Shown here: positions 30,424-47,055 of the stretch, one piece after another | How the letters are laid out: each line of letters starts with the position of its first letter | Position numbering within the stretch: position 1 is the first letter of the stretch | From: an uncultured Eubacterium sp. | Lineage (GTDB): Bacteria; Bacillota; Clostridia; Lachnospirales; Lachnospiraceae | Assembly: GCA_947089855.1 (NCBI GenBank) | Contig: CAMUML010000030.1 | Location: 1 to 51,994, forward strand | Direction of reading: 5' to 3' | Length of the DNA: 51,994 bases | Notes under the pieces: model-generated | Told to the model about the DNA's origin: nothing | The model's input: the letters and a program-made list of their open reading frames with translations, nothing else | The model's database searches: none | Made by a program: the position numbers and the translations under genes

Positions 30424-31617
30424 CTAGCTATCTAAATCATCCAAAAACGAAAACCCCCTATTATCGCCCTCAATATAATCCGCATAATACAGCAAAATTA
30501 CAACATCCGGATCATACTCCTGAATATATGCATCTGTCAGCCTATCCGATTCCGCATCAAAAATATACCTCACTTCCCGGAAACTGAGGATCAAATAAGG
30601 GGCCACCGCCTTCCCAAACGAATCCGTCACCATCAAAACCTTTGTCTCATTACCCGCTTGATCATTCATAAAATCCCCTAACGACTTTCCCAATACATAG
30701 TCATAGGTATAACGGGATGCATGGTCTTTCTTTTGCAAAGGCCCTTCCTCAACCAGCATATCCACAAAGCCCCCGCTTATATCCCCTGCCTGGATCAAAG
30801 TGTCAAAATCCGGCGTTATCAATACAAAATCATCAACACCCGCAAAATACTTTCCCGTCCTTTGCCCCCTGCTGCCTAAATGCCAGTTTTGATAGGTTGT
30901 CATCGTGTAATTAGATAAATCTGCCACTTTCGGAGGAACTGCCGTTTTGATATGGCCCTGGATCCAGGACAACAGTTTGCGATATGCATAAAATCCTGCC
31001 TGGGTTGTCCAGTGATGGTCCGTTTTATACATCATTTGATAGGTATCCCATCCATCGTTATGTATTTCCTCGCGGAAATCCAGATAATCAACCTGTTGCG
31101 TTTCCAGCATATGAATAAACCGGTCAATATTGTCATTCCCATAATCCGAGACCCCTACAGGCAGCTGTGGATCATATTTATCACTGGTATAGGGGCAAAT
31201 TGCAAACAGCATAGGGATCCCCTTTTTATCCAAATAAGCGTTTAACAACTGCAGACGGCTTGCTTTCTCTTGCAGCGCTTCGTCTGTTTCGTAAGCATGC
31301 GTAGTCAGTAAATATCCATTGTTAAGTTTTACAACCCCATTCATTTCATGCTGCCCAGTAACATTACGCATCAGCCCATTTAAATTTACAAACTGCATCT
31401 TCCCAAAGAAATTAGAAATATAATCTGCCTCCCCCTTATTTCCAAGGCTAACCGTCCAATTATTATCATCGATTTCATCATTGATCCAGAAATTTATTAC
31501 CTTTTTTGCATTCATAAACCCAAATACCCCAAGCAGCCCCGCAAATAGGAGCCCATATACCCCAAGCTTTGCACAAAAGCCTTTTGCTCCAGCCAATAAC
31601 TGCCTTACCTGCCTCAT
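30424..31617 (-). CDS. DHHW/AlgX-like protein, polysaccharide O-acetylation partner
   Basis: A 397-residue protein with one N-terminal membrane anchor (LGVYGLLFAGLLGVFGF) and a large outer domain of SGNH-hydrolase type related to AlgX/AlgJ. The eponymous DHHW lies in YKTDHHWTTQAGFYAY, with the Ser in VTDSFGKAVAP and a Ser-Asn-like segment upstream. Family members take acetyl groups passed through the membrane by an MBOAT protein and transfer them to polysaccharide. The MBOAT gene is directly upstream, ending nine bases before this start, which supports that partnership. Confidence 0.85.
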   Translation of the reverse strand: MRQVRQLLAGAKGFCAKLGVYGLLFAGLLGVFGFMNAKKVINFWINDEIDDNNWTVSLGNKGEADYISNFFGKMQFVNLNGLMRNVTGQHEMNGVVKLNNGYLLTTHAYETDEALQEKASRLQLLNAYLDKKGIPMLFAICPYTSDKYDPQLPVGVSDYGNDNIDRFIHMLETQQVDYLDFREEIHNDGWDTYQMMYKTDHHWTTQAGFYAYRKLLSWIQGHIKTAVPPKVADLSNYTMTTYQNWHLGSRGQRTGKYFAGVDDFVLITPDFDTLIQAGDISGGFVDMLVEEGPLQKKDHASRYTYDYVLGKSLGDFMNDQAGNETKVLMVTDSFGKAVAPYLILSFREVRYIFDAESDRLTDAYIQEYDPDVVILLYYADYIEGDNRGFSFLDDLDS

Positions 31618-31626
31618 AGGTACCTC

Positions 31627-33036
31627 CTAAAAATTAAAATAAATAAAGGGGTTATGTGCCCCTAAAACTAGGAAAGAAACCGCCCATAGAAAACCCACCA
31701 GGTATCCAATGGGTACGATATATTTTTCTATGATTGCAACATGCCTGATCCGTTTGGCTGCTACCCTCCCCCAACAGGCAGCCGGTGCCAAAAAAAGGAG
31801 CCCCAATATTAGAAATGCTCCATATTCCCGCAAAATACGGATTGCCTGTGGATCATAGAACGGATTTTTATAATAAAAGCCAAGCATGGACAAACCGTAT
31901 TTTATCCCGGACCGCAACCCCTCTGCACGAAAAATAACCCATCCAAAATTAACATACAGCAACACCAGTATCCGGTAGGTTCCATGAAAGATCCGGTTTG
32001 TGGACCTGTCTGGTTTTATGAAATATTTTTCTATTACGAGTGCAGCAAAATAGAAAAATCCCCATGCCGCAAAAGAAAAGGCCGCGCCATGCCAGATCCC
32101 GGTAAGGACCCATACAACAGCCATATTACAAATATGCCTGTGTGCTGGTACTTTTGAACCGCCAAGCGGAATATATACATAATCCCGGAACCAAGTACTT
32201 AATGAAATATGCCACCGCCTCCAAAAATCCGTGACCGAACCTGCCATGTATGGATAATTGAAGTTCTCTTCAAAGGTAAACCCCAACATTTTACCAAGGC
32301 CGATGGCCATATCCGAATAACCAGAAAAATCATAAAAGATCTGCAGCGAAAAACAAATTGACCCAATCCATGCCCCAAGTACAGAATTCCCTGCCGGCTG
32401 GTTTCCAAAATAAAAGTCTGCGGCATCCGCCAGATTATTTGCAAGAATGACTTTTTTACAAAATCCCCGCATAAACCTTTTCGCACCATCGCCAAAAGAC
32501 CCCAAATCCAGATTCCGGTTCTGGATCTGTGCCGCAACCGAATGGTAGCGGACGATCGGTCCAGCAACAAGCTGCGGGAAAAGCGAGATATACAGTGCCA
32601 GATTTAAAATATTATGCTGTGCATCCGCTGTCCCCCTATATACGTCAACCACATATGACATAGCTTGGAACGTATAAAAAGAGATACCAACCGGCAAGGC
32701 AATTTCCCATACTGAAAAATTTTGTTGGAAAAGAATGTTTATAATATTGATAGAAAAACCTAAATATTTAAAAACAAAAAGGATACCTAGATTATAAAGG
32801 ACACTGGCTGCAAGCAGAAGTTTCCGGTAACGGTATTTTTCAATTGCCAGTGCAAAACAATAATTGAAAACCACAGAAAAGAGCATCAAATATACCATCT
32901 TAGGCTCGCCGCACGCATAAAATACCAAGCTCGCCATCAGCAGGACCCCATTGCGGTATTCCTCTTTTGCCAGATAATAAAACAGCAATGTTACTGGCAA
33001 AAACACAAACAAAAATATTGTACTTGAAAAGACCAT
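31627..33036 (-). CDS. MBOAT-family O-acyltransferase (AlgI/DltB-like)
   Basis: A 469-residue polytopic membrane protein that moves acyl groups, usually acetyl, across the membrane. It opens VFSSTIFLFVFLPVTLLFYYLA; the conserved segments LPVGISFYTFQAMSYVVDVYRG, FYDFSGYSDMAIGLGKMLGF, DFWRRWHISLSTWFRDYVYI and TGIWHGAAFSFAAWGF are all present, the last with the catalytic His. This order matches AlgI rather than DltB. It pairs with the DHHW protein downstream and probably O-acetylates the polysaccharide made by this locus. Confidence 0.95.
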   Translation of the reverse strand: MVFSSTIFLFVFLPVTLLFYYLAKEEYRNGVLLMASLVFYACGEPKMVYLMLFSVVFNYCFALAIEKYRYRKLLLAASVLYNLGILFVFKYLGFSINIINILFQQNFSVWEIALPVGISFYTFQAMSYVVDVYRGTADAQHNILNLALYISLFPQLVAGPIVRYHSVAAQIQNRNLDLGSFGDGAKRFMRGFCKKVILANNLADAADFYFGNQPAGNSVLGAWIGSICFSLQIFYDFSGYSDMAIGLGKMLGFTFEENFNYPYMAGSVTDFWRRWHISLSTWFRDYVYIPLGGSKVPAHRHICNMAVVWVLTGIWHGAAFSFAAWGFFYFAALVIEKYFIKPDRSTNRIFHGTYRILVLLYVNFGWVIFRAEGLRSGIKYGLSMLGFYYKNPFYDPQAIRILREYGAFLILGLLFLAPAACWGRVAAKRIRHVAIIEKYIVPIGYLVGFLWAVSFLVLGAHNPFIYFNF

Positions 33037-33112: not shown

Positions 33113-34378
33113 TTACCCCGCATCATCTGCCTTGCCTGTCAAACGGCCTATATCCGCATCCCCTGCCACTTTTTCAAAATAGGTATCCGGATGCCGCTGG
33201 TCAAACGGCTCATTTGCCCACATCACAGTTACCAGATCCTGCGTCTGGCTTAAGTTGATAATATTATGCGTATACCCCGGCAGCATCTGCACCGCCTGCA
33301 TCTGCCCGCCCCAGACTTCAAATTCCAGTACCGGGTATGGCATGCCGTTTTCATCCACGCCAACCCTGCGCTCCTGGATCAGCGCATGGCCGGATACTAC
33401 AATAAAGATCTCCCATTTGCTGTTATGCCAATGCTGGCCCCTGATACTGCCAGGCCGGGCAATGTTTACCGAAACTTGCCCACAGGACGTTGTCCGCAGC
33501 AGCTCCGTAAACACGCCCCTTTCATCCCGGTTCATACGAAGCCCATAGGCAATTCGTCCTTTCGGCAGGTAAGACAGATAGGTACTATACAGCTTCCCTG
33601 CAAAAGACCCCTCCGGCATATCCGGCAGCAAAAGCGTTTCCGGCATTTTCCGGAAGGACTGCAGCAGGTCCACAACCTCCCCAAGCGTAACCCGGTACGT
33701 TTTCGGGGCATAACAGTACCTTCCTCCATCCTTTCCGACCGGATCCAGCCCTTGGTATTCACACCGGTGCTCCCTGCCTTCCAGCGCGTCCAGCAGTTCT
33801 TCCACCAGATCATCGATATAAAGCAGTTCCAGCTGCGTATCCCTGTTATTTACCGTATATTCCAAATCATTTGCCACGGCATGGCAAAACGTAGCCACAG
33901 CTGAATTATAATTGGGCCGGCACCACTTGCCAAACAAGTTTGGAAAACGGTAGATAAGGACCTTCACGCCTGCCTGCGCGCCATATTGGAACACCAGCCC
34001 TTCCCCTGCCAGCTTGCTCTGCCCATAAGCAGAACCCACATAACGCCCAGCCGGCACCGCCTGTATGGAACTAGAAACCATCACCGGCGCTTTGCTATGA
34101 TATTCCCGGAGCTTTTGCAGCAGGCGGCGGGTAAATCCATAGTTCCCCTCCATAAATGCAGACGGATCCTCCGGGCGGTTTACGCCTGCAAGATGGAACA
34201 CAAAGTCGGCATCCCTGCAAAAACCGTCCAAAAGCGCTTCCCCCGTATCCAGGTCATACGCATAAACCTGATCGATCTGGATCCGCCTTGTCCGGTCCTT
34301 CCCCTCTTTGATATTAGAAAGGTTTGCTACCAGGTTTTTCCCTACAAACCCTTTCGCCCCTGTAACCAGTATGTTCAT
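33113..34378 (-). CDS. capF: CapF: UDP-2-acetamido-2,6-dideoxy-hexulose reductase (SDR plus cupin)
   Basis: A 421-residue bifunctional enzyme in UDP-N-acetyl-L-fucosamine synthesis. Residues 1-250 are an extended SDR domain (NILVTGAKGFVGKNLVANL; YGQSKLAGE carries the Tyr-Lys pair). Residues 290-410 form a zinc cupin domain (GQHWHNSKWEIFIVVSG... and QMLPGYTHNIINL). This two-domain layout is diagnostic of CapF/FnlB/WbjC. It overlaps the upstream capE by four bases (ATGA), so the two are translationally coupled. The last enzyme of the route, CapG, is not in the window. Confidence 0.92.
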   Translation of the reverse strand: MNILVTGAKGFVGKNLVANLSNIKEGKDRTRRIQIDQVYAYDLDTGEALLDGFCRDADFVFHLAGVNRPEDPSAFMEGNYGFTRRLLQKLREYHSKAPVMVSSSIQAVPAGRYVGSAYGQSKLAGEGLVFQYGAQAGVKVLIYRFPNLFGKWCRPNYNSAVATFCHAVANDLEYTVNNRDTQLELLYIDDLVEELLDALEGREHRCEYQGLDPVGKDGGRYCYAPKTYRVTLGEVVDLLQSFRKMPETLLLPDMPEGSFAGKLYSTYLSYLPKGRIAYGLRMNRDERGVFTELLRTTSCGQVSVNIARPGSIRGQHWHNSKWEIFIVVSGHALIQERRVGVDENGMPYPVLEFEVWGGQMQAVQMLPGYTHNIINLSQTQDLVTVMWANEPFDQRHPDTYFEKVAGDADIGRLTGKADDAG

Positions 34379-35427
34379 GGGGAAACCGCCCCCTTTCCTC
34401 CCAGCTGTTTTTGCACATAATCCGCAGTCAGGAGCTTTTCCACCGTCCCTTCCACATCCAGTAACGGCGCATTATGGCTTGTGTAAGCCTTATCCCCCTG
34501 CGTAAGCACCTGACCCTCCACAAAATATTTATCGTAATTTAAGTCCCTGCCATCCGCTGCTACCCGGTAATAACGCCCCATATCCACACAGCGGAGCCTT
34601 TCTTCCCTTGTCATAAGCGTTTCGTACAGTTTTTCCCCATGGCGCGTCCCAATGACCCTTGTCCCAGTATCGCCAAACAGCCGCTGCACTGCCCTGGCTA
34701 GGGTACCGATTGTCGACGCATCCGCCTTTTGGATAAACAAATCGCCCGGCCTGGCATGTTCAAAGGCAAACCGCACAAGCTCCACAGCTTCATCCAGGTT
34801 CATTAAAAACCGCGTCATTTCCGGGTTTGTAATCGTAACCGGGCTGCCTGCCTGGATCTGGCTGATAAAAAGCGGTATGACTGACCCGCGGCTGCACATC
34901 ACATTCCCATAACGGGTACAGCAGATCACGGTATCCCCACGTTCGGCCGCCACCCGCGCATTTGCCTGTACAATATGCTCCATCATCGCCTTGGATGTCC
35001 CCATTGCATTAATCGGATAAGCCGCCTTGTCCGTCGAAAGGCAGACAATACGCTTTACCCCCGCTTCTATACCCGCATGGAGCACATGGTCCGTCCCCTC
35101 TATATTGGTCTGCACTGCCTCCATTGGAAAAAATTCACAGGACGGCACCTGCTTTAAGGCAGCCGCATGAAATATGTAGTCGACACCTGGCATTGCATCC
35201 CTGACCGACTGGATATTGCGGACATCGCCAATATAAAATTTGACCTTGGAAGCATGTTCTGGATATTTCGCCCAAAGCGCATGGCGCATATCATCCTGCT
35301 TTTTTTCATCGCGGGAGAAAATACGGACCTGTGCAATGTCTGTTGTAAGGAAATGCCGCAGCACTGCATTTCCAAAAGAACCAGTGCCTCCGGTGACCAG
35401 TAATGTTGCATTATGAAATAAACTCAT
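34375..35427 (-). CDS. capE: CapE: UDP-GlcNAc 4,6-dehydratase/5-epimerase
   Basis: A 350-residue extended SDR enzyme that starts the UDP-L-FucNAc route from UDP-GlcNAc. NAD-binding loop TLLVTGGTGSFGNAVLRHF; catalytic region STDKAAYPINAMGTSKAMME, in which Met replaces the usual Tyr of Y-x-x-x-K, as in the CapE/FlaA1/PseB subgroup. The C-terminal part (GTRHGEKLYETLMTREE) is the family-typical substrate loop. It is cytosolic and single-domain, so not the membrane-anchored CapD/PglF type. It lies between the flippase and capF. Confidence 0.93.
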   Translation of the reverse strand: MSLFHNATLLVTGGTGSFGNAVLRHFLTTDIAQVRIFSRDEKKQDDMRHALWAKYPEHASKVKFYIGDVRNIQSVRDAMPGVDYIFHAAALKQVPSCEFFPMEAVQTNIEGTDHVLHAGIEAGVKRIVCLSTDKAAYPINAMGTSKAMMEHIVQANARVAAERGDTVICCTRYGNVMCSRGSVIPLFISQIQAGSPVTITNPEMTRFLMNLDEAVELVRFAFEHARPGDLFIQKADASTIGTLARAVQRLFGDTGTRVIGTRHGEKLYETLMTREERLRCVDMGRYYRVAADGRDLNYDKYFVEGQVLTQGDKAYTSHNAPLLDVEGTVEKLLTADYVQKQLGGKGAVSP

Positions 35428-35430
35428 TCG

Positions 35431-36963
35431 TTAACCCTTTCTTTTTCTAAATATATTTTTTGCCCGGCTAAATAAGGAAATTGCAAGTGTTCTATGGAAG
35501 ATAAGTGAGATCATACATGCCGCTGCCGTATGGATACACAAAAAAACAGCCCCAAACAGAAAAAAATCAAAATAACCGTTGATACGGACCGGTATCCTGC
35601 GCTCTACCGCACAGATAGCCACTCCCAAAACAGCAAACGGCGCCACAACCCTGCAAAGTTCAGGCAGTTTCTTTTCAAAAAATTTCATATGGACATAGCC
35701 CATTTCCAGGACAGCCAATACCACCGCTGTCAACAGCAAAGCTGCCAGCATACCGTACACCCCAGCTGTATTTTTGCCGGCATACATTGCCCCAAGCAGC
35801 AACGCACAGGCTATGGCCTGGAAATTCCTGCTTATTTTAAACTCCCCCGCCATATTGATCAGATGGCCGCTCGGTATATGCAGCATTTCGATTGCAGCGG
35901 TTACCGCCATAAGCATTGCTATTTGGGCATCGTAATAGCCAATATCATCCACACCGGCTGTATAGATTTTAATAAACGGGAGGATTAATACATAAGCAGT
36001 CGCCAACAGGATAAACACCGCGCAGGCCGCTGCATACTCATACTGGCGGAACACCTTCCATACATCTTCACGCGGCCTTTCCGCAAGCATCTGCCCAATC
36101 CCCATACGCGGCGCATCGATCATGCCATGAAGGAGGCTTTTGACCATAATAAATACATTATTATAAACAGCATAAACACTTGCAGCCAGTGTGCCCCCCG
36201 CTGGCGAAATAGATAAAAAGACAATCGGGGCAGATTCATAAACCACGCCCGTGACCTTTTGTACCAGGACATCATTGGTCCCTTTGATCATACCCTTTCC
36301 GTTTCCTGTATCCGTCCCAATCCGGATATACTGGAAGCGATGCTTGACATACGCTTTGATCAACAAACTATTCAACAGGGCCGCCATCATGGTAATAAAA
36401 CGCACCAGCCACATAGGCCCGCCAGCCAAGATCAGGATAATGTTGGCGATATGGCCCGCCCCAACGGTCAGTATTGTTATCATACTAACTATATATTCTT
36501 TTTGCTGTGCCTGCAAAAACACCCGGTAAGTTGTTGCATAATAAAGGTTAAAAGCCTGCGGTACCACTGCCATTAGGACCACTGCTGCAATAAACGCTTT
36601 CGGCAGCCCGCTGTTTACTGCCATTGTATAGGCTGCAGCCGCTACCATACCGGCGCAAAGGAACACTACACCGATCGTCCGGAATTTTTTTCTTGTTGCA
36701 GTTAAAATCCCGTTGACCAACGGATAGTCCCCCGCACTTACCGGTGCAAACAAGGCAACATTGGATGCCAGCGTAAATCCGCCTTCCAACACTAGAAGGA
36801 CATTCACTATCTGGTTCGCCGTAGCATTCAGCCCGTTAAAATCCGACCCATAATGCATAATTACAAGCCTGGTCACCACAATTCCCAATAACCCATTGAC
36901 CAGCGTAAGTGCAACGGCTGATATTACATTATAAAAACTGGAAATACTTCTATTTGTCTTCAT
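35431..36963 (-). CDS. Wzx-type polysaccharide flippase
   Basis: A 510-residue membrane protein with about 14 helices, opening SSFYNVISAVALTLVNGLLGIVV and GSDFNGLNATANQIVNVLLVLEGG. It belongs to the MOP superfamily flippases that move undecaprenyl-linked repeat units outward. Sequence conservation in this class is low; assignment rests on length, topology and its place in a locus with a polymerase and chain-length protein. It is adjacent to capE (three bases) and to the interrupted glycosyltransferase. Confidence 0.88.
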   Translation of the reverse strand: MKTNRSISSFYNVISAVALTLVNGLLGIVVTRLVIMHYGSDFNGLNATANQIVNVLLVLEGGFTLASNVALFAPVSAGDYPLVNGILTATRKKFRTIGVVFLCAGMVAAAAYTMAVNSGLPKAFIAAVVLMAVVPQAFNLYYATTYRVFLQAQQKEYIVSMITILTVGAGHIANIILILAGGPMWLVRFITMMAALLNSLLIKAYVKHRFQYIRIGTDTGNGKGMIKGTNDVLVQKVTGVVYESAPIVFLSISPAGGTLAASVYAVYNNVFIMVKSLLHGMIDAPRMGIGQMLAERPREDVWKVFRQYEYAAACAVFILLATAYVLILPFIKIYTAGVDDIGYYDAQIAMLMAVTAAIEMLHIPSGHLINMAGEFKISRNFQAIACALLLGAMYAGKNTAGVYGMLAALLLTAVVLAVLEMGYVHMKFFEKKLPELCRVVAPFAVLGVAICAVERRIPVRINGYFDFFLFGAVFLCIHTAAACMISLIFHRTLAISLFSRAKNIFRKRKG

Positions 36964-36979
36964 GCTTCCACAGTATTTG

Positions 36980-37689
36980 TTATTTCACCACAAAATTATA
37001 TTTCAGGATACAGTAAAATGCCCTTAGGGCATCCTTCATCCCTATCTTCTTTCCTTCTTCAAATGTCCTTGGGTGGTAAGAGATCGGCACCTCGTAAATT
37101 CTGCACTTCTTTTTTGCCAGTTTCGCTGTGATCTCCGGCTCAAACCCAAACCTGTCCTCTTTTAACTCAATGGATTGGATCACATCCCTGCGGAACATTT
37201 TATAACAAGTCTCCATATCGCTTAAAGACAAGTCCGAACAGATATTGGACAGGGCCGTAAGCACCTTATTCCCTAATTCATGGTAAAACCCATCGACACG
37301 GAACTGGTTGCTCCTAAGGTAACGTGAGCCATATACAGCATCCGCATCACATTCCCCACTGATAAAAGGCTGGATCAGGCGCACAAAATCATCGGGGTTA
37401 TATTCCAGGTCGGCATCCTGCACCACCACAAAATCCCCAGTCGCAGCTGCAAACCCATGCCTAAGGGCCACACCCTTTCCACGGTTTCTTTTATGATATA
37501 AAATTTTATCTACTTGCCCGTCAAATACCCCCCCCTTAACATTTCGCGTGTCCCGTCTGACGAACAATCATCTACAATAATAATTTCTGTTTTCAACCCG
37601 CATTGGTTCACTTTCTGAACCACACGCCCTATCGTATCTTTTTCATTATAAACCGGTATCACTACCGACAACACATTCTTCTGGCCCAC
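36980..37689 (-). pseudogene. Family 2 glycosyltransferase, frameshifted at a poly-G tract (possibly phase-variable, OFF)
   Basis: Two frames together make a complete GT2 of dolichol-phosphate-sugar-transferase type. The N-terminal part has VLSVVIPVYNEKDTIGRV and IIIVDDCSSDGTREML and stops at 37510. The C-terminal part has HKRNRGKGVALRHGFA, the DXD-like VVQDADLEYNPDDF and FGFEPEITAKLAKK, and runs to 36980. The switch lies at eight G residues on the coding strand (37528-37535); nine G (or six) would join the frames as L-R-G-G-V-F-D-G. Start: GTG 37689 with AGGAG ten bases upstream; a TTG at 37779 overlapping the neighbour is possible. Either slippage or sequencing error could explain it. Confidence 0.85.
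37528..37535. repeat. Homopolymer tract, C8 on plus (G8 coding)
   Basis: Eight consecutive C on the plus strand inside the GT2 gene. The reading frame breaks exactly here. Poly-G/C tracts of 8-10 are classic contingency loci in other bacteria. Confidence 0.9.
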
Positions 37690-37760
37690 TTTCCAACTTC
37701 TCCTTTTCTCCCACAGCCCTTTTATTGATCTAGCAACGCCCAATCTATCCAGCCGCCTTG

Positions 37761-38705
37761 TTATGCAGTCCTTATACAATCCCGAAAATAGCCGATCGTC
37801 TTTTCCAGCCCCTGTTCCAATGCAACCTTTGGCTGCCAGCCCAGTTTCTGCCCCGCCAAGCCGATCATCGGTTTCCTCTGTAAAGGGTCATCCTGCGGAA
37901 GCGGCCGATAAACAATTTCCGACTTCGACCCTGTCATTTTTATCACTTTTTGTGCCAGTTCCAACATTGAGAACTCCCCTGGATTGCCCAGGTTAACCGG
38001 CCCTGTAAAACCACTTTCCGACTCCATCATCTTTACCAGCCCGTCTACCAGGTCACTGACATAGCAAAAACTCCTTGTTTGGCTTCCATCGCCATAAATA
38101 GTGACCGGTTCCCCTCTTAATGCCTGCACGATAAAATTTGATACCACCCGCCCGTCGTCCATCCGCATCCTTGGCCCATATGTATTGAAAATGCGCACAA
38201 CCTTTATATCAACGCCATGCTGCCTGTGGTAATCAAAAAATAACGTTTCCGCCATCCGTTTCCCCTCATCATAGCAGGAGCGGATGCCAATCGGGTTAAC
38301 GCAGCCCCGGTAGGATTCCGGCTGCGGATGTACTTCTGGATCCCCATATACCTCTGAGGTACTTGCCTGCAGTATCCTTGCATGGCACCTCTTTGCCAGC
38401 CCAAGCGTATGGAGTGCGCCAAGGAAGCTCGTCTTGCCTGTCTTGATCGGGTCATACTGGTAATGTACCGGGCTTGCCGGACATGCCAGGTTGTAGATCT
38501 GGTCGCATTCGATATAAATCTCCCCAGTCACATCCCTGCGTATAAATTCAAAATACGGATGGTTCATCAGATGCCTGATATTATCTTTCTGCCCGGTAAA
38601 CAGATTGTCTACGCAAATTACATCATATCCCATCCCCAAAAGCTTTTCACACAAATGCGACCCGATAAATCCGGCCCCGCCAGTTACTAATACCCTCTTT
38701 TTCAT
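37761..38705 (-). CDS. UDP-glucuronate decarboxylase (UDP-xylose synthase)
   Basis: A 314-residue extended SDR enzyme that oxidises and decarboxylates UDP-glucuronate to UDP-xylose. NAD loop [19 protein letters not shown]; the UXS-diagnostic series [52 protein letters not shown] (Tyr and Lys of the catalytic pair) and [19 protein letters not shown] is complete. It suggests xylose, or a sugar derived from UDP-xylose, in the polymer. No UDP-glucose dehydrogenase is in the window, so UDP-glucuronate must be made elsewhere. Confidence 0.93.
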
Positions 38706-38717
38706 GCCTGCTGCCTC

Positions 38718-40721
38718 CTATTTCTTTTTCACCCATACGGAATGCCCTTCATCATATATCAACCCACAATCATAAGCATCCTGCCCATGCCAGTAATCCT
38801 TTTCAAAATCCAGCGGAAGGTTTACCGCTATAATAGCATCCGGAACATGCCCGCCATTGATCCCGCCTGCCTGTGTAGGATGCCCGCTTAGGTCAACCGG
38901 ATACACTTTCACGCCTTTTGGCACATAACGGGCCAATACCGGATACTGGTACCACTCATTATCTGCCAGCCCGATCTCGGAAACGGAAAGGCTATCCAAA
39001 TATCCACACATAGCCATATAATGCGAAGCTTCCCCATTCGCCCTAAAATACTGCGCAAACCTTGTCTGCCGTTCAAAGGCCTGGTCAAGTACAGGTTCCA
39101 GGTTAAATAAATATTGTTTTGTTACGGCCGTAAGGTTCACTGTGTATAACAAAACGCCCAGGCAGCCTATCCATATATTTTTTGCCTTTACTGCCACACA
39201 TCTGTCCGCCAAACGTCCGAACACAATCATGGATGCCAATACTGCCACTGAAAATGACGGGATCAAAAGCCTTGCCACCCAAGGCTGCCATCTGACTGCT
39301 GCCATAGAAACAAATAATTGCAAAAAACCGCAAAAAATAAAAGCATCCATGCACCTGCCCTCTACCGTACTGCGCCTTCCCCTGCACAGCTTGCCCACAA
39401 TGCCCGTTAGAAAAGCGATCATTGCCGCCGCTGCAACCCATAAGATAACTGAGGCACTGCCTGTATCCATGCCCAATGAATATTGGATATAAAACGCATT
39501 GCCGTAAAAAGAGATTTCCGGTGCGTTGATATTTACATGGAACAAATCCGCAAACCAATTAGCGCAATGATAAATTTCGTTTTCAAAACCCGGCCATACA
39601 GATACCGTCGCCAAGTTTTTTACAATATTTACAAGCACGCTCTTTATTTCAAACGTACCGGTTGAAATCTGCGACATATACCCGGCTGCCAGTATATCCC
39701 CGCAATAGTTATAATTCCGGATAAAAACCGTCAACGTAGCAGCAAGTGCCGCCAAAACCGCAGTACCGCTTAAAACGGCCAGATGAAGCAGCTGGCCGTT
39801 TTTCTTCACCCTTGCCCAAAAAGCCCATACAGCAACCAGCAAGGCCACAATACATGCGCTTGGTTTTGCATGGTATAAAAAACCACATGCAGCCCCCAAC
39901 GCTGCAAATGTTGCAATTGGCCCCCTTTTCCATTCCAGCTTTTTATCAGAAAAAACAATATCCAGCATAAGGTACACAATTGCCAGCGTCCACATCGCAG
40001 AATAAAGGTCAACCTGTGTCGAACACCCTTCTGCTGCAACGATATTTGCCGCACAGAACAAAAACCCTCCCAAATAACTGATAACAGGTTTTACATGGAC
40101 CCTCCTTAACGCACCAATAATAAAAACCGTACAAAATATTTCAGACACGTTCTGTACCATATTTGCATATATATCCTGTAATCCAGTCAAACAAAACAAA
40201 TGAAGGTTGATATACTCGGCCAGGACTGGCGAGATCAATTGCCTGGAAATATTGGTATCAAAATATGAAACGCTCCTATTTTGTATCCAATACATAATCC
40301 TTGGAAGATGATAGGTCATCGAATCCCAATTATACGGTACCGTATGCATAGCAATATAGGCATTTAGCCCTAACAGCAGGCATACCGTCAGTAAAAGCCC
40401 CTTTTTTGCTATGCCACCACTAGGCAAAAGCCCCTTCCTGCCTTCCCATAAGGAAACAAGATCCCTCCTGCCTTTCCATAAAGCAGCAAGCAAGAACCCT
40501 GCATATACGATCCACACCAACAGCACATAACGCCTTCGGACCATAGAAAAGATACTTAAAACCTCCGTTGCCAAATAAAGGTAGCCGGTCCATATAAGGT
40601 GTGCATATATAATAGAAAGGATCCCTTGGCGTACCTTCCCATATACAGCCAATACCGTAAAAAGAAGTGTCAGTAAAAAAAACAGAGCAAAAAACGCCTG
40701 CATAAATTGCCCATCCCACAT
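38718..40721 (-). CDS. Polytopic GT-C-type glycosyltransferase (PMT/ArnT-like)
   Basis: A 667-residue membrane protein with about 11-13 helices. The first outer loop carries the acidic motif YNWDSMTYHLPRIMYW, in the place of the catalytic Asp of GT-C enzymes of the GT39/ArnT class, which use polyprenyl-phosphate sugars. The C-terminal third is a soluble outer domain (WYQYPVLARYVPKGVKVYPVDL). It probably adds a side-chain sugar to the polymer outside the cell. It is 12 bases downstream of the polymerase gene. Confidence 0.8.
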   Translation of the reverse strand: MWDGQFMQAFFALFFLLTLLFTVLAVYGKVRQGILSIIYAHLIWTGYLYLATEVLSIFSMVRRRYVLLVWIVYAGFLLAALWKGRRDLVSLWEGRKGLLPSGGIAKKGLLLTVCLLLGLNAYIAMHTVPYNWDSMTYHLPRIMYWIQNRSVSYFDTNISRQLISPVLAEYINLHLFCLTGLQDIYANMVQNVSEIFCTVFIIGALRRVHVKPVISYLGGFLFCAANIVAAEGCSTQVDLYSAMWTLAIVYLMLDIVFSDKKLEWKRGPIATFAALGAACGFLYHAKPSACIVALLVAVWAFWARVKKNGQLLHLAVLSGTAVLAALAATLTVFIRNYNYCGDILAAGYMSQISTGTFEIKSVLVNIVKNLATVSVWPGFENEIYHCANWFADLFHVNINAPEISFYGNAFYIQYSLGMDTGSASVILWVAAAAMIAFLTGIVGKLCRGRRSTVEGRCMDAFIFCGFLQLFVSMAAVRWQPWVARLLIPSFSVAVLASMIVFGRLADRCVAVKAKNIWIGCLGVLLYTVNLTAVTKQYLFNLEPVLDQAFERQTRFAQYFRANGEASHYMAMCGYLDSLSVSEIGLADNEWYQYPVLARYVPKGVKVYPVDLSGHPTQAGGINGGHVPDAIIAVNLPLDFEKDYWHGQDAYDCGLIYDEGHSVWVKKK

Positions 40722-42103: not shown

Positions 42104-43336
42104 CTAAACCATTTTTTCCCACATATCCACAATCCGTTCGCACATGGCCTTTGGATTTTTCTCATTTAAAATAAACATCTTGCCTTTATTACCGATCCAT
42201 TCCCTTTCCTTCTCCGGCATTTCACAGATTTCCACAATTTTATCCCTCAATCCCTTGTCTGTTTCATCATCTGCATACTGTATATACTGTCCATATTCTG
42301 GCGGGTCACAGGGCAGCTTATGCGCAATATACGGTTTGCCAGACGCAAGTGAATCAACGGATTTGCTTGGAAAGCTATATTTTACATAGTCCAAACCGCT
42401 GGTTCTTGGGTTGATCAGAACCGTTGACCTCTGCTGCCAACCCACAACCTCTTTAGGGCTGATAAACCCAATATATTTTATCCTCGAATCTTTTTTTGCC
42501 GCTTTTCGAACCTCTTTTTCTGCGCTGCCCCCTCCGGCCAGTACAAGCCTATAATCAGGATCCCGAATCAATGAAAAAGCCCTCAGCAAATGTCCGATCC
42601 CATACTCTTCCCTTAATGCCCCAGCATAAAAAACAATTTTTTTATTCCTCATCACCTTTTTTTCCGGCTCTATAGCATTGCTGGCAACCGGCGGTGTATA
42701 TACACATTCCAAAACTACAAACGGCTTACTATTGACGTCAAATGCTTCTGCCATATCTTTTGTAGCAAATACAAAACAATCAAATGCGTCAGCCATTTTC
42801 ATAATACCTTTATCTACGATTTGTTCTATCAAAAACCTTTTCAAATTCATTTTCTCCTGTGGGCAAAGCCCATATTTTCCTGGCACATCACCTGTATTAA
42901 GGCATAAGACAACCCGGTTCCCATATTCTTTTTTCAACCAGGCTGCTGCCAGCATAGCAGGATAATAAATATAATGTACACAGACCAGGCATTTCCCATG
43001 TCCCCTGCTTCTCACCCATTTCCTTAATTTTTTATGTAAATTCACAGCTTGGGTAACATATTTAATACCAAAAAGATTGATATAACCAATATGCCAATCC
43101 TTCGACCCGCCAACATGGCTCCATTTTTCTTCGTGAAAAATAACCTGGGGAAATTTTGGATAATTCAAAGTATTGATAATATTAAATACGGTTACTGGAT
43201 GATGCAGGTTTTCATCTATACCCTTTATTGCCGCATAAGTGACTTTATGTCCAGATATTCCCGACAACCTTTCTTTCGCACGTTCAGCCAGCTTTTTTTC
43301 CTCTGGCAGCAGCAAACTGCAATACGCTACATTCAT
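42104..43336 (-). CDS. Family 4 glycosyltransferase
   Basis: A 410-residue GT-B enzyme. The C-terminal half shows KKIVFYAGALREEYGIGHLLRAFSLI, YRLVLAGGGSAEKEV, IKYIGFISPKEVVGWQQRSTVLINPRTSG and FPSKSVDSLASGKPYIAH, where the usual E-x7-E acidic pair is not obvious but the fold signature is clear. It transfers a nucleotide-activated sugar to the growing lipid-linked unit in the cytosol. Acceptor and donor are unknown. Its start abuts the stop of the upstream CDP-glycerol-type gene (one base apart). Confidence 0.88.
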   Translation of the reverse strand: MNVAYCSLLLPEEKKLAERAKERLSGISGHKVTYAAIKGIDENLHHPVTVFNIINTLNYPKFPQVIFHEEKWSHVGGSKDWHIGYINLFGIKYVTQAVNLHKKLRKWVRSRGHGKCLVCVHYIYYPAMLAAAWLKKEYGNRVVLCLNTGDVPGKYGLCPQEKMNLKRFLIEQIVDKGIMKMADAFDCFVFATKDMAEAFDVNSKPFVVLECVYTPPVASNAIEPEKKVMRNKKIVFYAGALREEYGIGHLLRAFSLIRDPDYRLVLAGGGSAEKEVRKAAKKDSRIKYIGFISPKEVVGWQQRSTVLINPRTSGLDYVKYSFPSKSVDSLASGKPYIAHKLPCDPPEYGQYIQYADDETDKGLRDKIVEICEMPEKEREWIGNKGKMFILNEKNPKAMCERIVDMWEKMV

Positions 43337-44527
43337 TTAACTTCTCCTATATTGGCCCTTTCCATAGCAAACTTCATAAATCCTTCTGCAGACAAGCTTC
43401 GTAGCCTTCCCCGTCTCACATCCTCCAAGGCTTTCATAATGCCGCTTGCAGCTATCTCTATATTTCTTTTCATCAAAATCCAGTATATTCTTTTCCAGCT
43501 CATCGTTATTTACTGACTTTGGAAATGGCCACTCCGAAACAGGTGTATATAGCTTTGTAGTCCTGGCATAATGCTCCAGATCTACCGCATAGGTAAAGCA
43601 CGGCTTCCCTGTCAACATAAAGTCCCACATGGAAGATGAAAAATCATTAATCATAACATCTGCCGCCAAAATCAATTCCTGCATTTCCTCATAATCCGAC
43701 AGATCTATGATATTCCCCTTTGGAAGTTCATCACGGTTTGTTACACACGGATGCAGTCGGAAGCCAAATTTCCATTCCCCTCCAAAACGCTTTTTTAATG
43801 CTTTACATACCCGTCCACAGTCAATCCCATAAGAAATGGCAATCGATTCCTTAAAATAATTATCTTCTGGCTTACGGTAGGTAGGCGCAAATAGCACCAG
43901 ATACTCGCCATCGTGCAAACCCAGCTTTTTTCTTACCCGCACACGCAATTCCGTATTGCCATTGACCAATATATCATTTCTCGGCATCCCAATTTCCCAA
44001 AACCTGTTCAGTGGAATCAGATTTGACCTGTTCAGTGCCGATGTAAACTTCTTACATGTTGACAAAAATACATCCGTCTGCCTTGCAGCCAGCAGAAGGT
44101 CTTTCCGAAACAGATAGGTATCTTCAAACATATCTTTTCCGCACGTCTTATATGCCCCGCCTCCATGATGTGTATTAATCACATACTGCGTCTTCCTTAA
44201 CGGCAGATAGGAATAACCGCCGCTATTTGACACAAAAACCTTTGTTGTCATGGCATACCAGAAATACTGAACAGAATTAAAACGTACAAACTTGATTCTA
44301 AGTTTTAACTGTTTGTATTTTTCAGGCTGTTTCACAGAAAATATAACCTGAAACCTACCAGGATAATGTTTTAAAAGGTATTCGGCCACATATCTCGGAT
44401 TCGCCGAATAATTACCAGACAAATCATTATGTATAAATATCCGGTTCCTTTTTATTGGAACCAGTTTTAATGGAAAAAGTACAAAGCGCATAAACCTTTT
44501 TTTGAAATATCTGACAAATTCCTGCAT
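43337..44527 (-). CDS. CDP-glycerol/ribitol glycerophosphotransferase-family protein
   Basis: A 396-residue protein of the TagB/TagF class. Typical segments: VFVSNSGGYSYLPLRKTQYVINTHHGGGAYK, FAPTYRKPEDNYF, FGFRLHPCVTN and the active-site-like ADVMINDFSSSMWDFMLTGKP, where S-D-Y/F-S-S-x-x-x-D is conserved. Such enzymes add glycerol phosphate or ribitol phosphate, or related polyols, to a glycan or lipid-linked acceptor. It implies a phosphodiester substituent or a teichoic-acid-like character of the polymer, but the nucleotide donor enzyme (TagD-like) is not in the window. Confidence 0.87.
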   Translation of the reverse strand: MQEFVRYFKKRFMRFVLFPLKLVPIKRNRIFIHNDLSGNYSANPRYVAEYLLKHYPGRFQVIFSVKQPEKYKQLKLRIKFVRFNSVQYFWYAMTTKVFVSNSGGYSYLPLRKTQYVINTHHGGGAYKTCGKDMFEDTYLFRKDLLLAARQTDVFLSTCKKFTSALNRSNLIPLNRFWEIGMPRNDILVNGNTELRVRVRKKLGLHDGEYLVLFAPTYRKPEDNYFKESIAISYGIDCGRVCKALKKRFGGEWKFGFRLHPCVTNRDELPKGNIIDLSDYEEMQELILAADVMINDFSSSMWDFMLTGKPCFTYAVDLEHYARTTKLYTPVSEWPFPKSVNNDELEKNILDFDEKKYRDSCKRHYESLGGCETGKATKLVCRRIYEVCYGKGQYRRS

Positions 44528-44531
44528 AATG

Positions 44532-45584
44532 TTAAATCCTTTTCAACCGCATATTTAATGGCCTTTCTATATATTTCATTGAAAGAAGAGCAAAAAACAA
44601 TGTCATAAAAACGATAAGTACAAAAATACATACCCCCTGTCCAAATGGCAGGAAAGAATCATACCCAAAATGAACCTCTAGATTGATAAAAACCATCTGG
44701 TATAAATAAAAACCGTAAGTCAAATCATATTTCATATGAAATACATGTCTGAAAGCAAAAGCAAATATCACACATCCTGTAAGCATCGTCGTCACCGTAT
44801 TATAAAGTACCCCATCCAACATTTTCGGAAATGTGTAATTTATCTCGCAAAACTTCCACAAAATGTAAAAAGCAAGTATGATATACCGGTATTTTTCCAA
44901 CCAAGGGATCAGTTTTTCCCTTTGATACCACATCATCATTCCAAATAACAGGAAATACAAATATGGTAAAACCGTTACCCCTGCAATTTTATACAAGATC
45001 TCCGGAAATACAGCTTCCCCTCTAAAAATAACCATACTAAACAAAATCCATCCTGCCACTACCCCCCCCCAAGCGAAAATTGGCCTATCTTTCATCCTTT
45101 TATGTATTAACGGTACGCTCAAAAAAAACTGTATCTGCACAGCAACCGTCCACAAAACGCCATTCGGAACACCCACACCGTATCCCCTTAACCACTCTCC
45201 TGTATAAAAGTTTAGGCCCGTAAACTGAGTAGCAAAGTATACCAAAGCATCTTTCATACCCGGTATTTGATAAACCAGAAAAATAATACTAGTATTTACA
45301 ACAATACACACCCAAAACGCCGGTAAAATGCGGACCGCCCTGCCCAACAGCCACTTATTGGTACTTCTGCCCTCTATTGATTTCGCAGCAAGGAACCCAC
45401 ACAAAATAAACAGGACCGGAACGCCCCGGAAAAAATAAACGATCTGTTCTGCCGACTTTAGCCCTTGAAAATGCGTAACGACATGTCCAAGAAATACCTG
45501 GCCCGCCGCCGCAATCCGAAAAATATCCAAAATATTCCTATTATAGTCCCTTTCCTGCGTACCATCCATTTGCAACCACTCCAT
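44532..45584 (-). CDS. Acyltransferase family 3 (OafA/YrhL-like), with in-frame poly-G tract
   Basis: A 350-residue integral membrane acyltransferase with about ten helices. It opens DYNRNILDIFRIAAAGQVFLGHVVTHF, with the conserved His in the first helix pair, and has RAVRILPAFWVCIVV, the R-x-x-R-I-x-P motif of the family. It O-acetylates (or succinylates) a sugar. Nine G residues at 45062-45070 encode part of FAWGGVVAG; the frame is intact. Loss or gain of one G would truncate the protein, so it may switch. AT content rises through this gene and the next three. Confidence 0.9.
   Translation of the reverse strand: MEWLQMDGTQERDYNRNILDIFRIAAAGQVFLGHVVTHFQGLKSAEQIVYFFRGVPVLFILCGFLAAKSIEGRSTNKWLLGRAVRILPAFWVCIVVNTSIIFLVYQIPGMKDALVYFATQFTGLNFYTGEWLRGYGVGVPNGVLWTVAVQIQFFLSVPLIHKRMKDRPIFAWGGVVAGWILFSMVIFRGEAVFPEILYKIAGVTVLPYLYFLLFGMMMWYQREKLIPWLEKYRYIILAFYILWKFCEINYTFPKMLDGVLYNTVTTMLTGCVIFAFAFRHVFHMKYDLTYGFYLYQMVFINLEVHFGYDSFLPFGQGVCIFVLIVFMTLFFALLSMKYIERPLNMRLKRI
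45062..45070. repeat. Homopolymer tract, C9 on plus (G9 coding)
   Basis: Nine consecutive C on the plus strand within the acyltransferase gene, in frame. Together with the G8 tract at 37528-37535 these are the two longest G/C runs I found in the window, and both lie in the polysaccharide locus. Confidence 0.92.
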
Positions 45585-45792: not shown

Positions 45793-46977
45793 CTAGATCC
45801 CTTCCAGATATTGCTCAAACCAGTCAAGCAGTATTTTCCGTTCAAAATGCTTTTCATAGTATTCCCTGCTTTTCCTCCCCATCGTATCCCTGTCCGCTTC
45901 CATCATCTTTCGGATCCCCAAAACAAGCCCCCGCGCATCACCAGGCGGCGTACAGATTCCACATCCCGCGCGTTCTATGATCCGCTTTGTCTCCCCGGAC
46001 GCCGCCGCAAGCACCGGCATTCCGCAAGCCATATAGGACTGGAGTTTTGCCGGGATTGTCATTTCAAAAAGCCTGGTATCCATAAACGATAAAAACGCTG
46101 CATCGCAGGCTGCCAGCAGCTTTGGTATCTGCCTTGCATCCTGGCGGGGGTACAATACAAATTTCCCCCGGACACCCCTGCGTGCAATATCTTTTTCAAA
46201 AGCAGCCCGGTAACGCCCGTCTCCGACTACTACAAACTGTACATTTTCCCCTTTCATCCGTTCCGCTGCTTTTGGCAAAAGCTCCAATCCCTGTGCATAT
46301 CCGATATTCCCGGTAAAGATAAGCTTAAACGGCTGCCTGCCCTCCAGCCGGTACGGCTTATAAAAATCTTCCGCATACTGTGGCCAGTAATGGACTTTCC
46401 TTCTATCTACCTTCCTGCGGCAGACCGCCCTTGCAAAACTAGGGGAAGCCGCAAATATTTCATCCGAATTTTTATAAATATAATCAGCCATCCTATGGAT
46501 CGCACCGATCACAGCCGGATGATGGATACCAGCTACCGTTTCTACATTTTCCGGCCAAAGGTCCTGCACATACAGATAATGCTTGGCATGATGCCGCTTG
46601 GCATACCATACCCCAGCCAGCGCCTGTGTCATCGGAGATACTTCAAACGTAAAAACAATATCCGCATTTACATCAGTAAACAGGCTCCACAAAAAACCCG
46701 ATACAACAAACGAAAGGTAATTTGCCACCATTCCTGCCGGCCCCTTCCCCCTGGGAACCAGCGGTATCCGGATAATATTTACACCATTCCACTTTTCAAA
46801 ACGGTTTTTGGTATAGCCATAACCCTCAAAAAACTTCCCTGCCGGATAATTGGGGATACCGGTCAGCACCGTTACTTTATATCCCCGTTTCACCCATTCC
46901 GCCGCCATATCGTTAATCCGGAATGTTTCCGGATAAAAATACTGGGAAACGATAAGGATATGTGTCTTCCTTTTCAC
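45793..46977 (-). CDS. Family 4 glycosyltransferase, WbuB-like
   Basis: A 394-residue GT-B enzyme opening ILIVSQYFYPETFRINDMA and having GYKVTVLTGIPNYPAGKFF, YLYVQDLWPENVE and the donor-site series FKLIFTGNIGYAQGLELL and IPAKLQSYMACGMPVLAA. These match the WbuB group, among which are L-FucNAc transferases, in keeping with capE/capF in the same locus. It is the first transferase after the chain-length gene. The frame is open to 47028, but AGGAGGGG seven bases before GTG 46977 sets the start. Confidence 0.9.
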   Translation of the reverse strand: MKRKTHILIVSQYFYPETFRINDMAAEWVKRGYKVTVLTGIPNYPAGKFFEGYGYTKNRFEKWNGVNIIRIPLVPRGKGPAGMVANYLSFVVSGFLWSLFTDVNADIVFTFEVSPMTQALAGVWYAKRHHAKHYLYVQDLWPENVETVAGIHHPAVIGAIHRMADYIYKNSDEIFAASPSFARAVCRRKVDRRKVHYWPQYAEDFYKPYRLEGRQPFKLIFTGNIGYAQGLELLPKAAERMKGENVQFVVVGDGRYRAAFEKDIARRGVRGKFVLYPRQDARQIPKLLAACDAAFLSFMDTRLFEMTIPAKLQSYMACGMPVLAAASGETKRIIERAGCGICTPPGDARGLVLGIRKMMEADRDTMGRKSREYYEKHFERKILLDWFEQYLEGI

Positions 46978-47055
46978 CGACGCTCCCCTCCTGCTGCAAC
47001 TGCCTCCATTCCCTTTATCCCCTTCCATCCGGCATCCCTACCGGCCAAAAGCCTA

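What the first reader, a model, noticed from the sequence alone, without database searches (positions are those of the whole stretch)
37510..37567. Glycosyltransferase gene broken exactly at a G8 tract: candidate phase-variable polysaccharide switch
Two overlapping frames encode the N- and C-terminal parts of one intact-looking GT2, and the only defect is at eight consecutive G (37528-37535). Nine G would restore the frame; seven would stop within a few codons. Slipped-strand mispairing at poly-G tracts switches surface-glycan genes in Campylobacter and Neisseria, but such switching is little described in Lachnospiraceae, where inversion is better known.
Basis: partly seen in the sequence, partly recalled or inferred. 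Interest (0 to 1): 0.85.

Follow-up and report, generated by a model that had tools for sequence, protein, structure and literature searches.

The report
Poly-G glycan switch in gut commensal
A sugar-attaching enzyme gene in a gut bacterium is knocked out of frame at a run of eight Gs, and the same genome holds over a hundred such runs, mostly nine Gs long and often in surface-sugar genes, which looks like a large set of random on/off surface switches of a kind known mainly from pathogens.

Summary
A GT2 glycosyltransferase on the - strand is split at eight G (37528-37535), its only visible defect. Both halves match PF00535, and the part after the tract is under purifying selection (dN about 0.05, dS near saturation, against a genus orthologue). 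Five genus copies are intact and lack the tract, so it probably arose in this lineage.

It is not isolated. This genome has 8 G7, 13 G8, 79 G9 and 9 G10 runs; an order-4 Markov model expects about 61, 9.5, 1.5 and 0.2. Nine of 13 genus members share the G9 peak; G000 has the most G9 runs of 298 family genomes. Of 57 genes in or beside tracts, 23 fall in strict surface-glycan families (the control for this is small and biased). Two methyltransferase tracts kept at the same codons in relatives are open in some species and frameshifted in others. One G9 tract lies between perfect -35 and -10 boxes. MutS and MutL are intact, so loss of mismatch repair is not the cause.

Best reading: slipped-strand phase variation as in Campylobacter, forming a large phasome in a Lachnospiraceae genus. 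Not shown: mixed tract lengths at this locus, reversibility, or any glycan change.

The parts
37528..37535 (-). G8 tract (C8 on + strand) at which the GT2 reading frame breaks; the proposed slippage site
   Evidence: absent from five genus copies
37513..37779 (-). N-terminal part of the GT2 (LSVVIPVYNE...VDDCSSDGTREML), running out of frame just after the tract
   Evidence: PF00535 positions 1-46, E 1.1e-12; start codon not resolved
36983..37567 (-). C-terminal part of the GT2 in the other frame; carries the QDAD motif
   Evidence: PF00535 positions 56-166, E 4.6e-16; weak, below-cut-off similarity to polyprenyl/dolichyl-phosphate sugar transferases such as AglJ TIGR04182, 86.6 bits against a cut-off of 325; dN 0.048 against G009
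45062..45070 (-). second tract of the cluster, G9, in frame in an acyltransferase gene
44532..45584 (-). Acyl_transf_3 (PF01757) gene carrying the in-frame G9
   Evidence: E 1.6e-18
45793..47028 (-). glycosyltransferase group 1/4 gene of the glycan cluster
43337..44527 (-). CDP-glycerol glycerophosphotransferase family gene (teichoic-acid-like polymer)
   Evidence: PF04464 E 9.6e-60
42104..43336 (-). glycosyltransferase group 1 gene
38718..40721 (-). 667-aa membrane protein, 11 TM-like segments, two genes upstream of the GT2; possible membrane sugar transferase (inference, no family hit)
37761..38705 (-). NAD-dependent sugar epimerase/decarboxylase-like (SDR) gene directly upstream of the GT2
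35431..36963 (-). 510-aa membrane protein, 10 TM-like segments, directly downstream; flippase-like by topology only (inference)
34375..35427 (-). UDP-GlcNAc 4,6-dehydratase-like gene (FnlA-like; best NCBIfam match is below its cut-off)
33113..34378 (-). UDP-sugar reductase/epimerase with Polysacc_synt_C domain (WbcJ-like, below cut-off)
31627..33036 (-). MBOAT O-acyltransferase gene of the cluster
30424..31617 (-). AlgX-like SGNH acetyltransferase-domain gene

Best explanation
The G8 run is a slippage-prone simple-sequence tract inside a surface-polysaccharide glycosyltransferase. Replication slippage adds or removes G, moving the gene between an ON register and two OFF registers. The assembled state is OFF. 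By family and context the enzyme most likely makes or transfers one sugar of a teichoic-acid-like or capsular polymer built by the surrounding cluster, so OFF cells would lack that decoration while the backbone is still made. The tract is one member of a genome-wide set of more than 100 poly-G tracts whose lengths are pulled to nine. Shown: the break, the otherwise intact and constrained gene, the genome- and genus-wide G9 peak, many tracts in glycan genes, and ON/OFF differences at homologous tracts of methyltransferase genes in relatives. Inferred: slippage as the mutational step, reversibility in the population, the sugar change, and benefit under phage or immune pressure.
For: Break and intact halves. 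Purifying selection: against the G009 copy the part after the tract has pN 0.046 with pS 0.70 over 178 codons; no internal stop. Tract lengths in G000: 8 G7, 13 G8, 79 G9, 9 G10 against order-4 Markov expectations of 61, 9.5, 1.5 and 0.2, while A/T runs fall off smoothly. Nine of 13 genus members peak at G9, one of them (G006) tied with G10. G000 has the highest G9 count among 298 family genomes (G7 counts). Tracts not assigned to an ORF also peak at G9, 21 of 32, as expected of a mutational length equilibrium; Campylobacter tracts are 53% G9 and 26% G10 (PMC6321876, passages), attributed to insertion bias at G8 and deletion bias at G11 or longer (PMC8355987, passages). 23 of 57 genes in or beside tracts are in strict glycan families. 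Methyltransferase tract I in relatives: G9 open in G003 and G009, interrupted and open in G007, G10 frameshifted in one G005 copy, G9 frameshifted in the other. Tract II, at another place in more distant methyltransferases: G10 open in G012, G10 frameshifted in G003, G9 frameshifted in G005. Two further G000 genes broken at non-nine tracts: LicD (G10; both pieces matched) and an acyltransferase (G10; only the C-part was scanned).
Against: No length variation at this very tract could be observed: no reads or second strain were available. The tract is absent from all five genus copies, so it is not a conserved contingency locus. Unassigned tracts show the same G9 peak, so the tract itself may be a by-product of mutation rather than selected. 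The functional control is weak: 40 ORFs, both family lists cut (25 of 29 and 25 of 41 families shown), and drawn from stretches that hold none of the 110 tracts where about 11 were expected, so the Fisher p of 0.001 overstates what was tested. Four of 13 genus members show no peak, among them G004, the least fragmented assembly (6 contigs). G000 is a draft of 101 contigs with odd long poly-G runs, and annotated G-tract lengths can be wrong (PMC9187656, passages).
Confidence: 0.72

Rival explanations
1. Neutral hotspot: in this genus any G run that reaches 7-8 is driven to about nine by biased slippage, and the GT2 simply suffered a loss-of-function slip. It is a young pseudogene with no selected switching.
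For: G9 peak also among tracts not assigned to an ORF, 21 of 32; tracts also in housekeeping-like genes such as IspD, TadZ-like and an integrase; tract not conserved in five genus copies; the enrichment control is weak.
Against: 23 of 57 tract genes are in strict glycan families. Tracts are kept at the same codons across species in two methyltransferase families, and at the same place in a promoter spacer and a LytTR regulator. GT2 shows no decay beyond the tract.
Confidence: 0.17
2. Assembly or sequencing error: the true tract is in the ON register and the gene is intact.
For: Draft assembly; long poly-G runs of 35 and 49 and runs at contig ends resemble the Illumina 'G's end' effect described in PMC9187656.
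Against: The same assembly resolves 79 G9 runs, and 41 ORF-spanning G9 are in frame by the rule, so the assembler handles this length; separate genome records share homologous tracts.
Confidence: 0.07
3. Recoding: ribosomal -1 slippage on G-GGG-GGG, or RNA polymerase slippage, makes some full-length enzyme from the G8 gene, so it is never fully OFF.
For: The run itself is a slippery heptamer, and the needed shift is -1.
Against: No unusually stable downstream structure (z 0.11); no genus copy has the arrangement; other non-nine tracts break unrelated genes in the same way.
Confidence: 0.04

Closest known systems
Campylobacter poly-G phasome (PhasomeIt, PMC6321876; review PMC8355987)
   Same: Many poly-G tracts with a length peak at nine, surface glycan structures affected, frame-register switching; [quoted passage not shown]
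   Different: Gram-positive Lachnospiraceae gut commensal; MutS and MutL intact here whereas C. jejuni lacks functional mismatch repair; fewer tracts in ORFs (48 of 91 by the rule); switching not yet observed.
Bifidobacterium breve pilus G-tract switch (PMC9187656)
   Same: Gut commensal; G-tract in a surface-structure gene splits one product into two ORFs; the population holds several tract lengths (abstract and passages read).
   Different: Actinobacterium; sortase pilus genes, longer tracts (G11/G12 at one locus), shown by deep sequencing; here glycan genes on a genome-wide scale, shown only from assemblies.
Neisseria poly-G/C contingency genes and promoter-spacer tracts (PMC5084427 and PMC5953494 seen in search listings only; porA/opc promoter tracts recalled)
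   Same: Homopolymeric G/C tracts in surface-structure genes and, in one case here, between -35 and -10 boxes.
   Different: Different phylum; the promoter case here rests on two orthologues with spacers of 15 and 19 and no expression data.

Membership tests
Poly-G simple-sequence phase-variable (contingency) loci | Tract of about 8 or more G in a coding sequence, where unit changes shift the frame | tested here: met
Poly-G simple-sequence phase-variable (contingency) loci | Tracts longer or more frequent than genome composition predicts | tested here: met
   79 G9 observed against about 1.5 expected (order 4) or 23 (order 1); for G8 alone 13 against 9.5 or 87
Poly-G simple-sequence phase-variable (contingency) loci | Gene otherwise intact and constrained | tested here: met
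Poly-G simple-sequence phase-variable (contingency) loci | Tract length differs between individuals at the same locus | not testable with these tools
   no reads or second strain for GT2; at two homologous methyltransferase tracts, lengths and ON/OFF states differ between species and paralogues
Poly-G simple-sequence phase-variable (contingency) loci | High-rate, reversible switching | not testable with these tools
   needs culture or error-controlled deep sequencing
Poly-G simple-sequence phase-variable (contingency) loci | Association with surface-structure genes | tested here: inconclusive
   23 of 57 strict glycan genes against up to 4 visible of 40 control ORFs, Fisher p 0.001; but control lists were cut and the control stretches are tract-free by choice
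Core (conserved) phasome member | Tract kept at the same place in orthologues | tested here: not met
   GT2 tract absent in G003, G005 (two copies), G007 and G009
Hypermutability through loss of mismatch repair | mutS/mutL missing or broken | tested here: not met
   full-length mutS1 (1068 bits) and mutL (549 bits) without internal stops in G000; G008, which has neither over the cut-off, has no G9 peak
Programmed -1 ribosomal frameshift | Slippery heptamer with downstream stimulatory structure, conserved in orthologues | tested here: not met
   heptamer present, structure z 0.11, not conserved

The most novel reading that the evidence does not exclude
A whole genus of mismatch-repair-proficient Gram-positive gut commensals has independently evolved a Campylobacter-scale poly-G phasome. 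A biased slippage process pulls G runs to nine and keeps making new tracts, which are retained in surface-glycan genes and in promoter spacers, so that each cell carries one of very many surface combinations.
Probability: 0.53. Interest if true: 0.88.

Novelty: new member of a known kind. Interest (0 to 1): 0.78.

Why it matters
A 2025 review names as a major open question why genomes with many phase-variable loci seem restricted to pathogens (PMC11868660, section 8 read). A commensal genus with more than 100 poly-G tracts in one genome, intact mismatch repair and many tracts in glycan genes would be a direct counter-example, and it comes with relatives that lack the peak for comparison. It would also mean that glycan phenotypes of single isolates of such bacteria, and gene-absence calls in their metagenome assemblies, are snapshots of switching states. 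Eight literature searches touching Lachnospiraceae, Clostridia, Eubacterium or gut commensals listed no report of such poly-G switching there; several lists were capped (20 of 48, 15 of 37, 12 of 35 papers shown), and the library lacks preprints and most subscription journals.

Tried and rejected
Loss of mismatch repair as cause: rejected. G008, lacking mutS1 and mutL over the cut-offs, has 77 G7, 24 G8, 1 G9 and 0 G10, and G004, with an internal stop in mutS and mutL in two pieces, has no clear peak; but G001 and G012 have both genes and no peak, so no rule follows.

Strand asymmetry as special evidence: 85 of 91 tracts lie on the G-rich strand, but ordinary runs of 5-6 in the window are just as one-sided (53 against 3), so it is not informative.

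Promoter-spacer switching as the general explanation of intergenic tracts: 6 of 91 G000 and 4 of 35 G005 tracts pass a loose test, against 4 of 310 control G5-G6 runs and 59 of 1516 G4 runs. A near-perfect -10 just after the tract: 6 of 91, 2 of 35, 13 of 310 and 36 of 1516. Only the orthologous pair L133/L196 has perfect boxes. Kept as a single case.

Codon-usage classification with fixed thresholds was too weak and was replaced by open-frame classification. That rule also mislabels: it counts the GT2 and one acyltransferase as in-frame ORF and two gene junctions (L119, L012) as frameshifts; I corrected these by eye. Of the 110 runs of 8 or more, 91 were examined; the places list was cut, and some listed runs at or near contig ends were not fetched.

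Enrichment control: the 20 stretches were chosen by me after the tract places were known, and hold 0 runs of eight or more where 10.8 were expected. Background run counts and control ORFs therefore come from tract-free parts of the genome. A 100-ORF scan showed no strict glycan family with two or more members, but listed only 25 of 147 families.

A GT4 gene ending at a G11 (L148) was not counted as OFF, because no downstream continuation was found. In one search I first read the distant methyltransferases of G003 and G005 as tract-free at tract I; one search showed that they carry tracts at another place. Conserved tracts between G000 and G005 were sought in 20 G005 stretches only: of 57 protein entries from G000 (LicD as two pieces; GT2 not among them), two show a tract at the same place; only matches above 35% identity were printed. 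Structure prediction was not used.

Full report
What is there. The finding is correct in detail. On the - strand a family-2 glycosyltransferase reading frame runs LSVVIPVYNE...IIIVDDCSSDGTREML and then leaves its frame in a run of eight G at 37528-37535. The rest of the enzyme, including QDAD, continues in the overlapping frame. The two parts match complementary halves of PF00535. The gene lies in a large co-oriented polysaccharide cluster (about 30.4-48.5 kb): glycosyltransferases, a CDP-glycerol glycerophosphotransferase, MBOAT and Acyl_transf_3 acyltransferases, an AlgX-like protein, UDP-sugar dehydratase/reductase-like genes and several many-pass membrane proteins. A second tract of the cluster, G9 at 45062-45070, lies in frame in the acyltransferase gene 44532-45584.

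Is the gene merely dead? The part after the tract compared with the closest genus copy (G009, 92% identical over 178 codons) gives pN 0.046 and pS 0.70; the N part gives pN 0.15 and pS 0.69 over 56 codons. No further stop or frame break is seen. The break is thus young or reversible. Six copies were found in 5 of 13 genus genomes: the window's own and five others, all five intact and without the tract. The tract is therefore probably new in this lineage, and in the in-frame register of today's tract class the protein would carry one extra residue in a loop that varies among relatives.

The genome around it. One search counts 110 G runs of eight or more in the 4.08-Mb draft genome. Exact counts are 8 G7, 13 G8, 79 G9 and 9 G10. 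A 400-kb sample holds 284 G5, 29 G6 and no G7, and Markov models from it predict a steadily falling series (order 4: 61 G7, 9.5 G8, 1.5 G9; order 1: 329, 87, 23); A/T runs do fall smoothly. The sample is tract-free by choice (0 runs of eight or more against 10.8 expected), which should matter little for runs of 5-6. G7 is thus depleted and G9 strongly in excess. The same shape appears in 9 of 13 genus members (in G006 G9 ties with G10); G001, G004, G008 and G012 lack it. Outside the genus most of the family genomes listed have more G7 than G9 runs, and none of the 298 sampled has as many G9 runs as this genome; the next have 23 and 20. That sample holds only two members of this genus.

Why nine? 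In the open-frame classification of 91 tracts, 48 were called in-frame ORF, 3 frameshifted, 5 just upstream of an ORF, 3 at an ORF end and 32 other (corrections in Tried and rejected). G9 dominates inside ORFs (41 of 48) and also among the others (21 of 32), so the length is not set by reading-frame selection alone. Campylobacter shows the same preference, 53% G9 and 26% G10 (PMC6321876, passages), explained by slippage that tends to lengthen G8 and shorten G11 or longer (PMC8355987, passages). I infer the same kind of length attractor here. Loss of mismatch repair is not the cause: full-length mutS1 and mutL are present.

Which genes carry tracts? Of 57 genes in or directly beside tracts that were scanned, 23 belong to what I counted as strict glycan families: GT1/GT4, GT2, GT11, TupA ATP-grasp, MBOAT, Acyl_transf_3, hexapeptide acyltransferases, pyruvyl transferase, LicD, DUF6625, GT-D-like (the assignment of TupA and DUF6625 to glycan work is recalled). 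Nine more are methyltransferase, GNAT, FrhB, SDR and SPASM genes. Eight have no Pfam match. The rest are clearly other genes (GH2, two-component genes, AAA-ATPase-like, integrase, IspD, LacI-type and so on). Among 40 control ORFs up to 4 visible matches are of the strict kind, Fisher p 0.001. This control is weak: both lists were cut (25 of 29 and 25 of 41 families), and the ORFs come from tract-free stretches. Broken genes at tracts in this assembly besides the GT2 are a LicD-family gene (G10, both pieces matched) and an Acyl_transf_3 gene (G10, C-part matched, N-part not scanned).

Direct sign of switching in the genus. Next to the GT2 copy several relatives carry a methyltransferase whose codons for Ile-Gly-Gly-Gly-Tyr-Gly-Phe-Asp form a tract. 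It is G9 and open in G003 and G009; interrupted by an A and open in G007; G10 and frameshifted in one copy of G005; G9 in another register and frameshifted in the second copy of G005. More distant methyltransferases (42-46% identical) have a tract elsewhere, just before their VIADIGCG motif: G10 and open in G012, G10 and frameshifted in G003, G9 and frameshifted in G005. A membrane-protein gene in one of the G005 clusters is also split at a G9. Two further tracts are kept at the same place in G000 and G005: near the end of a LytTR response regulator, and upstream of an 806-residue putative surface protein, where the nine G lie exactly between TTGACA and TATAAT, with spacers of 15 and 19.

Mechanism and limits. 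Most likely, slippage moves the GT2 between frames and so removes or adds one sugar step of the surface polymer in part of the population. The enzyme shows weak, below-cut-off similarity to polyprenyl-phosphate sugar transferases, so a lipid-linked donor for side-chain addition is a reasonable but untested guess. Length variation at this tract, rates, reversibility and phenotype were not testable. The assembly is a draft; runs of 35 and 49 G and G runs at contig ends look like sequencing or assembly effects (compare 'G's end' in PMC9187656). Two things argue that the G9 class itself is real: homologous tracts in separate genome records and in-frame continuity through them.

Known or new. Slipped-strand phase variation at poly-G tracts is well known in Campylobacter and Neisseria and has been shown in the gut commensal Bifidobacterium breve. 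No report for Lachnospiraceae or other gut Clostridia appeared in the listings, some of them capped. The finding is therefore a new member of a known kind, notable for its host group, its scale and intact mismatch repair, and it bears on the question of why multi-locus phase variation seems confined to pathogens.

Organism. The next hits, L042 to about L067, are mostly Lachnospiraceae MAGs. That the genus is GTDB's Eubacterium_J from mouse gut is recalled, not tested.

Noticed in passing
L133 (G000:C20 about 16,134) and L196:5659-5667 (G005): A G9 tract sits exactly between perfect TTGACA and TATAAT boxes in front of an 806-aa putative secreted surface protein, conserved in a 55%-identical orthologue, with spacers of 15 and 19: a likely promoter-spacer switch.
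   Followed up: partly
L152:4097 and L209:2532: A LytTR-type response regulator carries a G9 tract near its C-terminal end in both G000 and G005.
   Followed up: partly
L189, L191, L192 (G012, G003, G005): A second methyltransferase family carries a G9/G10 tract just before its VIADIGCG motif, open in G012 and frameshifted in G003 and G005; G003 has another G10 about 90 bases upstream.
   Followed up: partly
G008 and G004 (genus members): G008 has no mutS1 or mutL match over the cut-off and shows many G7 but one G9; G004 has a mutS with an internal TAA and a mutL in two pieces, and no clear G9 peak. Intact mismatch repair does not prevent the G9 peak.
   Followed up: partly
G000:C42:20598-20632 and G000:C73:15848-15896: Poly-G runs of 35 and 49 (the first beside an inverted repeat), and G runs at the ends of contigs C16 and C23; probably sequencing or assembly effects at hairpins.
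   Followed up: partly
L022:2807, L028:1500, L033:1502, L123:3648: Intergenic near-palindromic repeats of the form ...CATGGCCT or CACGGCCT-G9-CCGCT..., all with G9 in the middle: a repeated element that carries the tract.
   Followed up: no
L151:4845-5649: A LicD-family gene is split at a G10 tract (pieces searched apart).
   Followed up: partly
G065, G187, G272 and G028: Four family genomes outside the genus with ten or more G9 runs also have more G9 than G7 (20 against 5, 14 against 7, 10 against 8, 10 against 5), and some others do at lower counts, so the peak may have arisen more than once.
   Followed up: no
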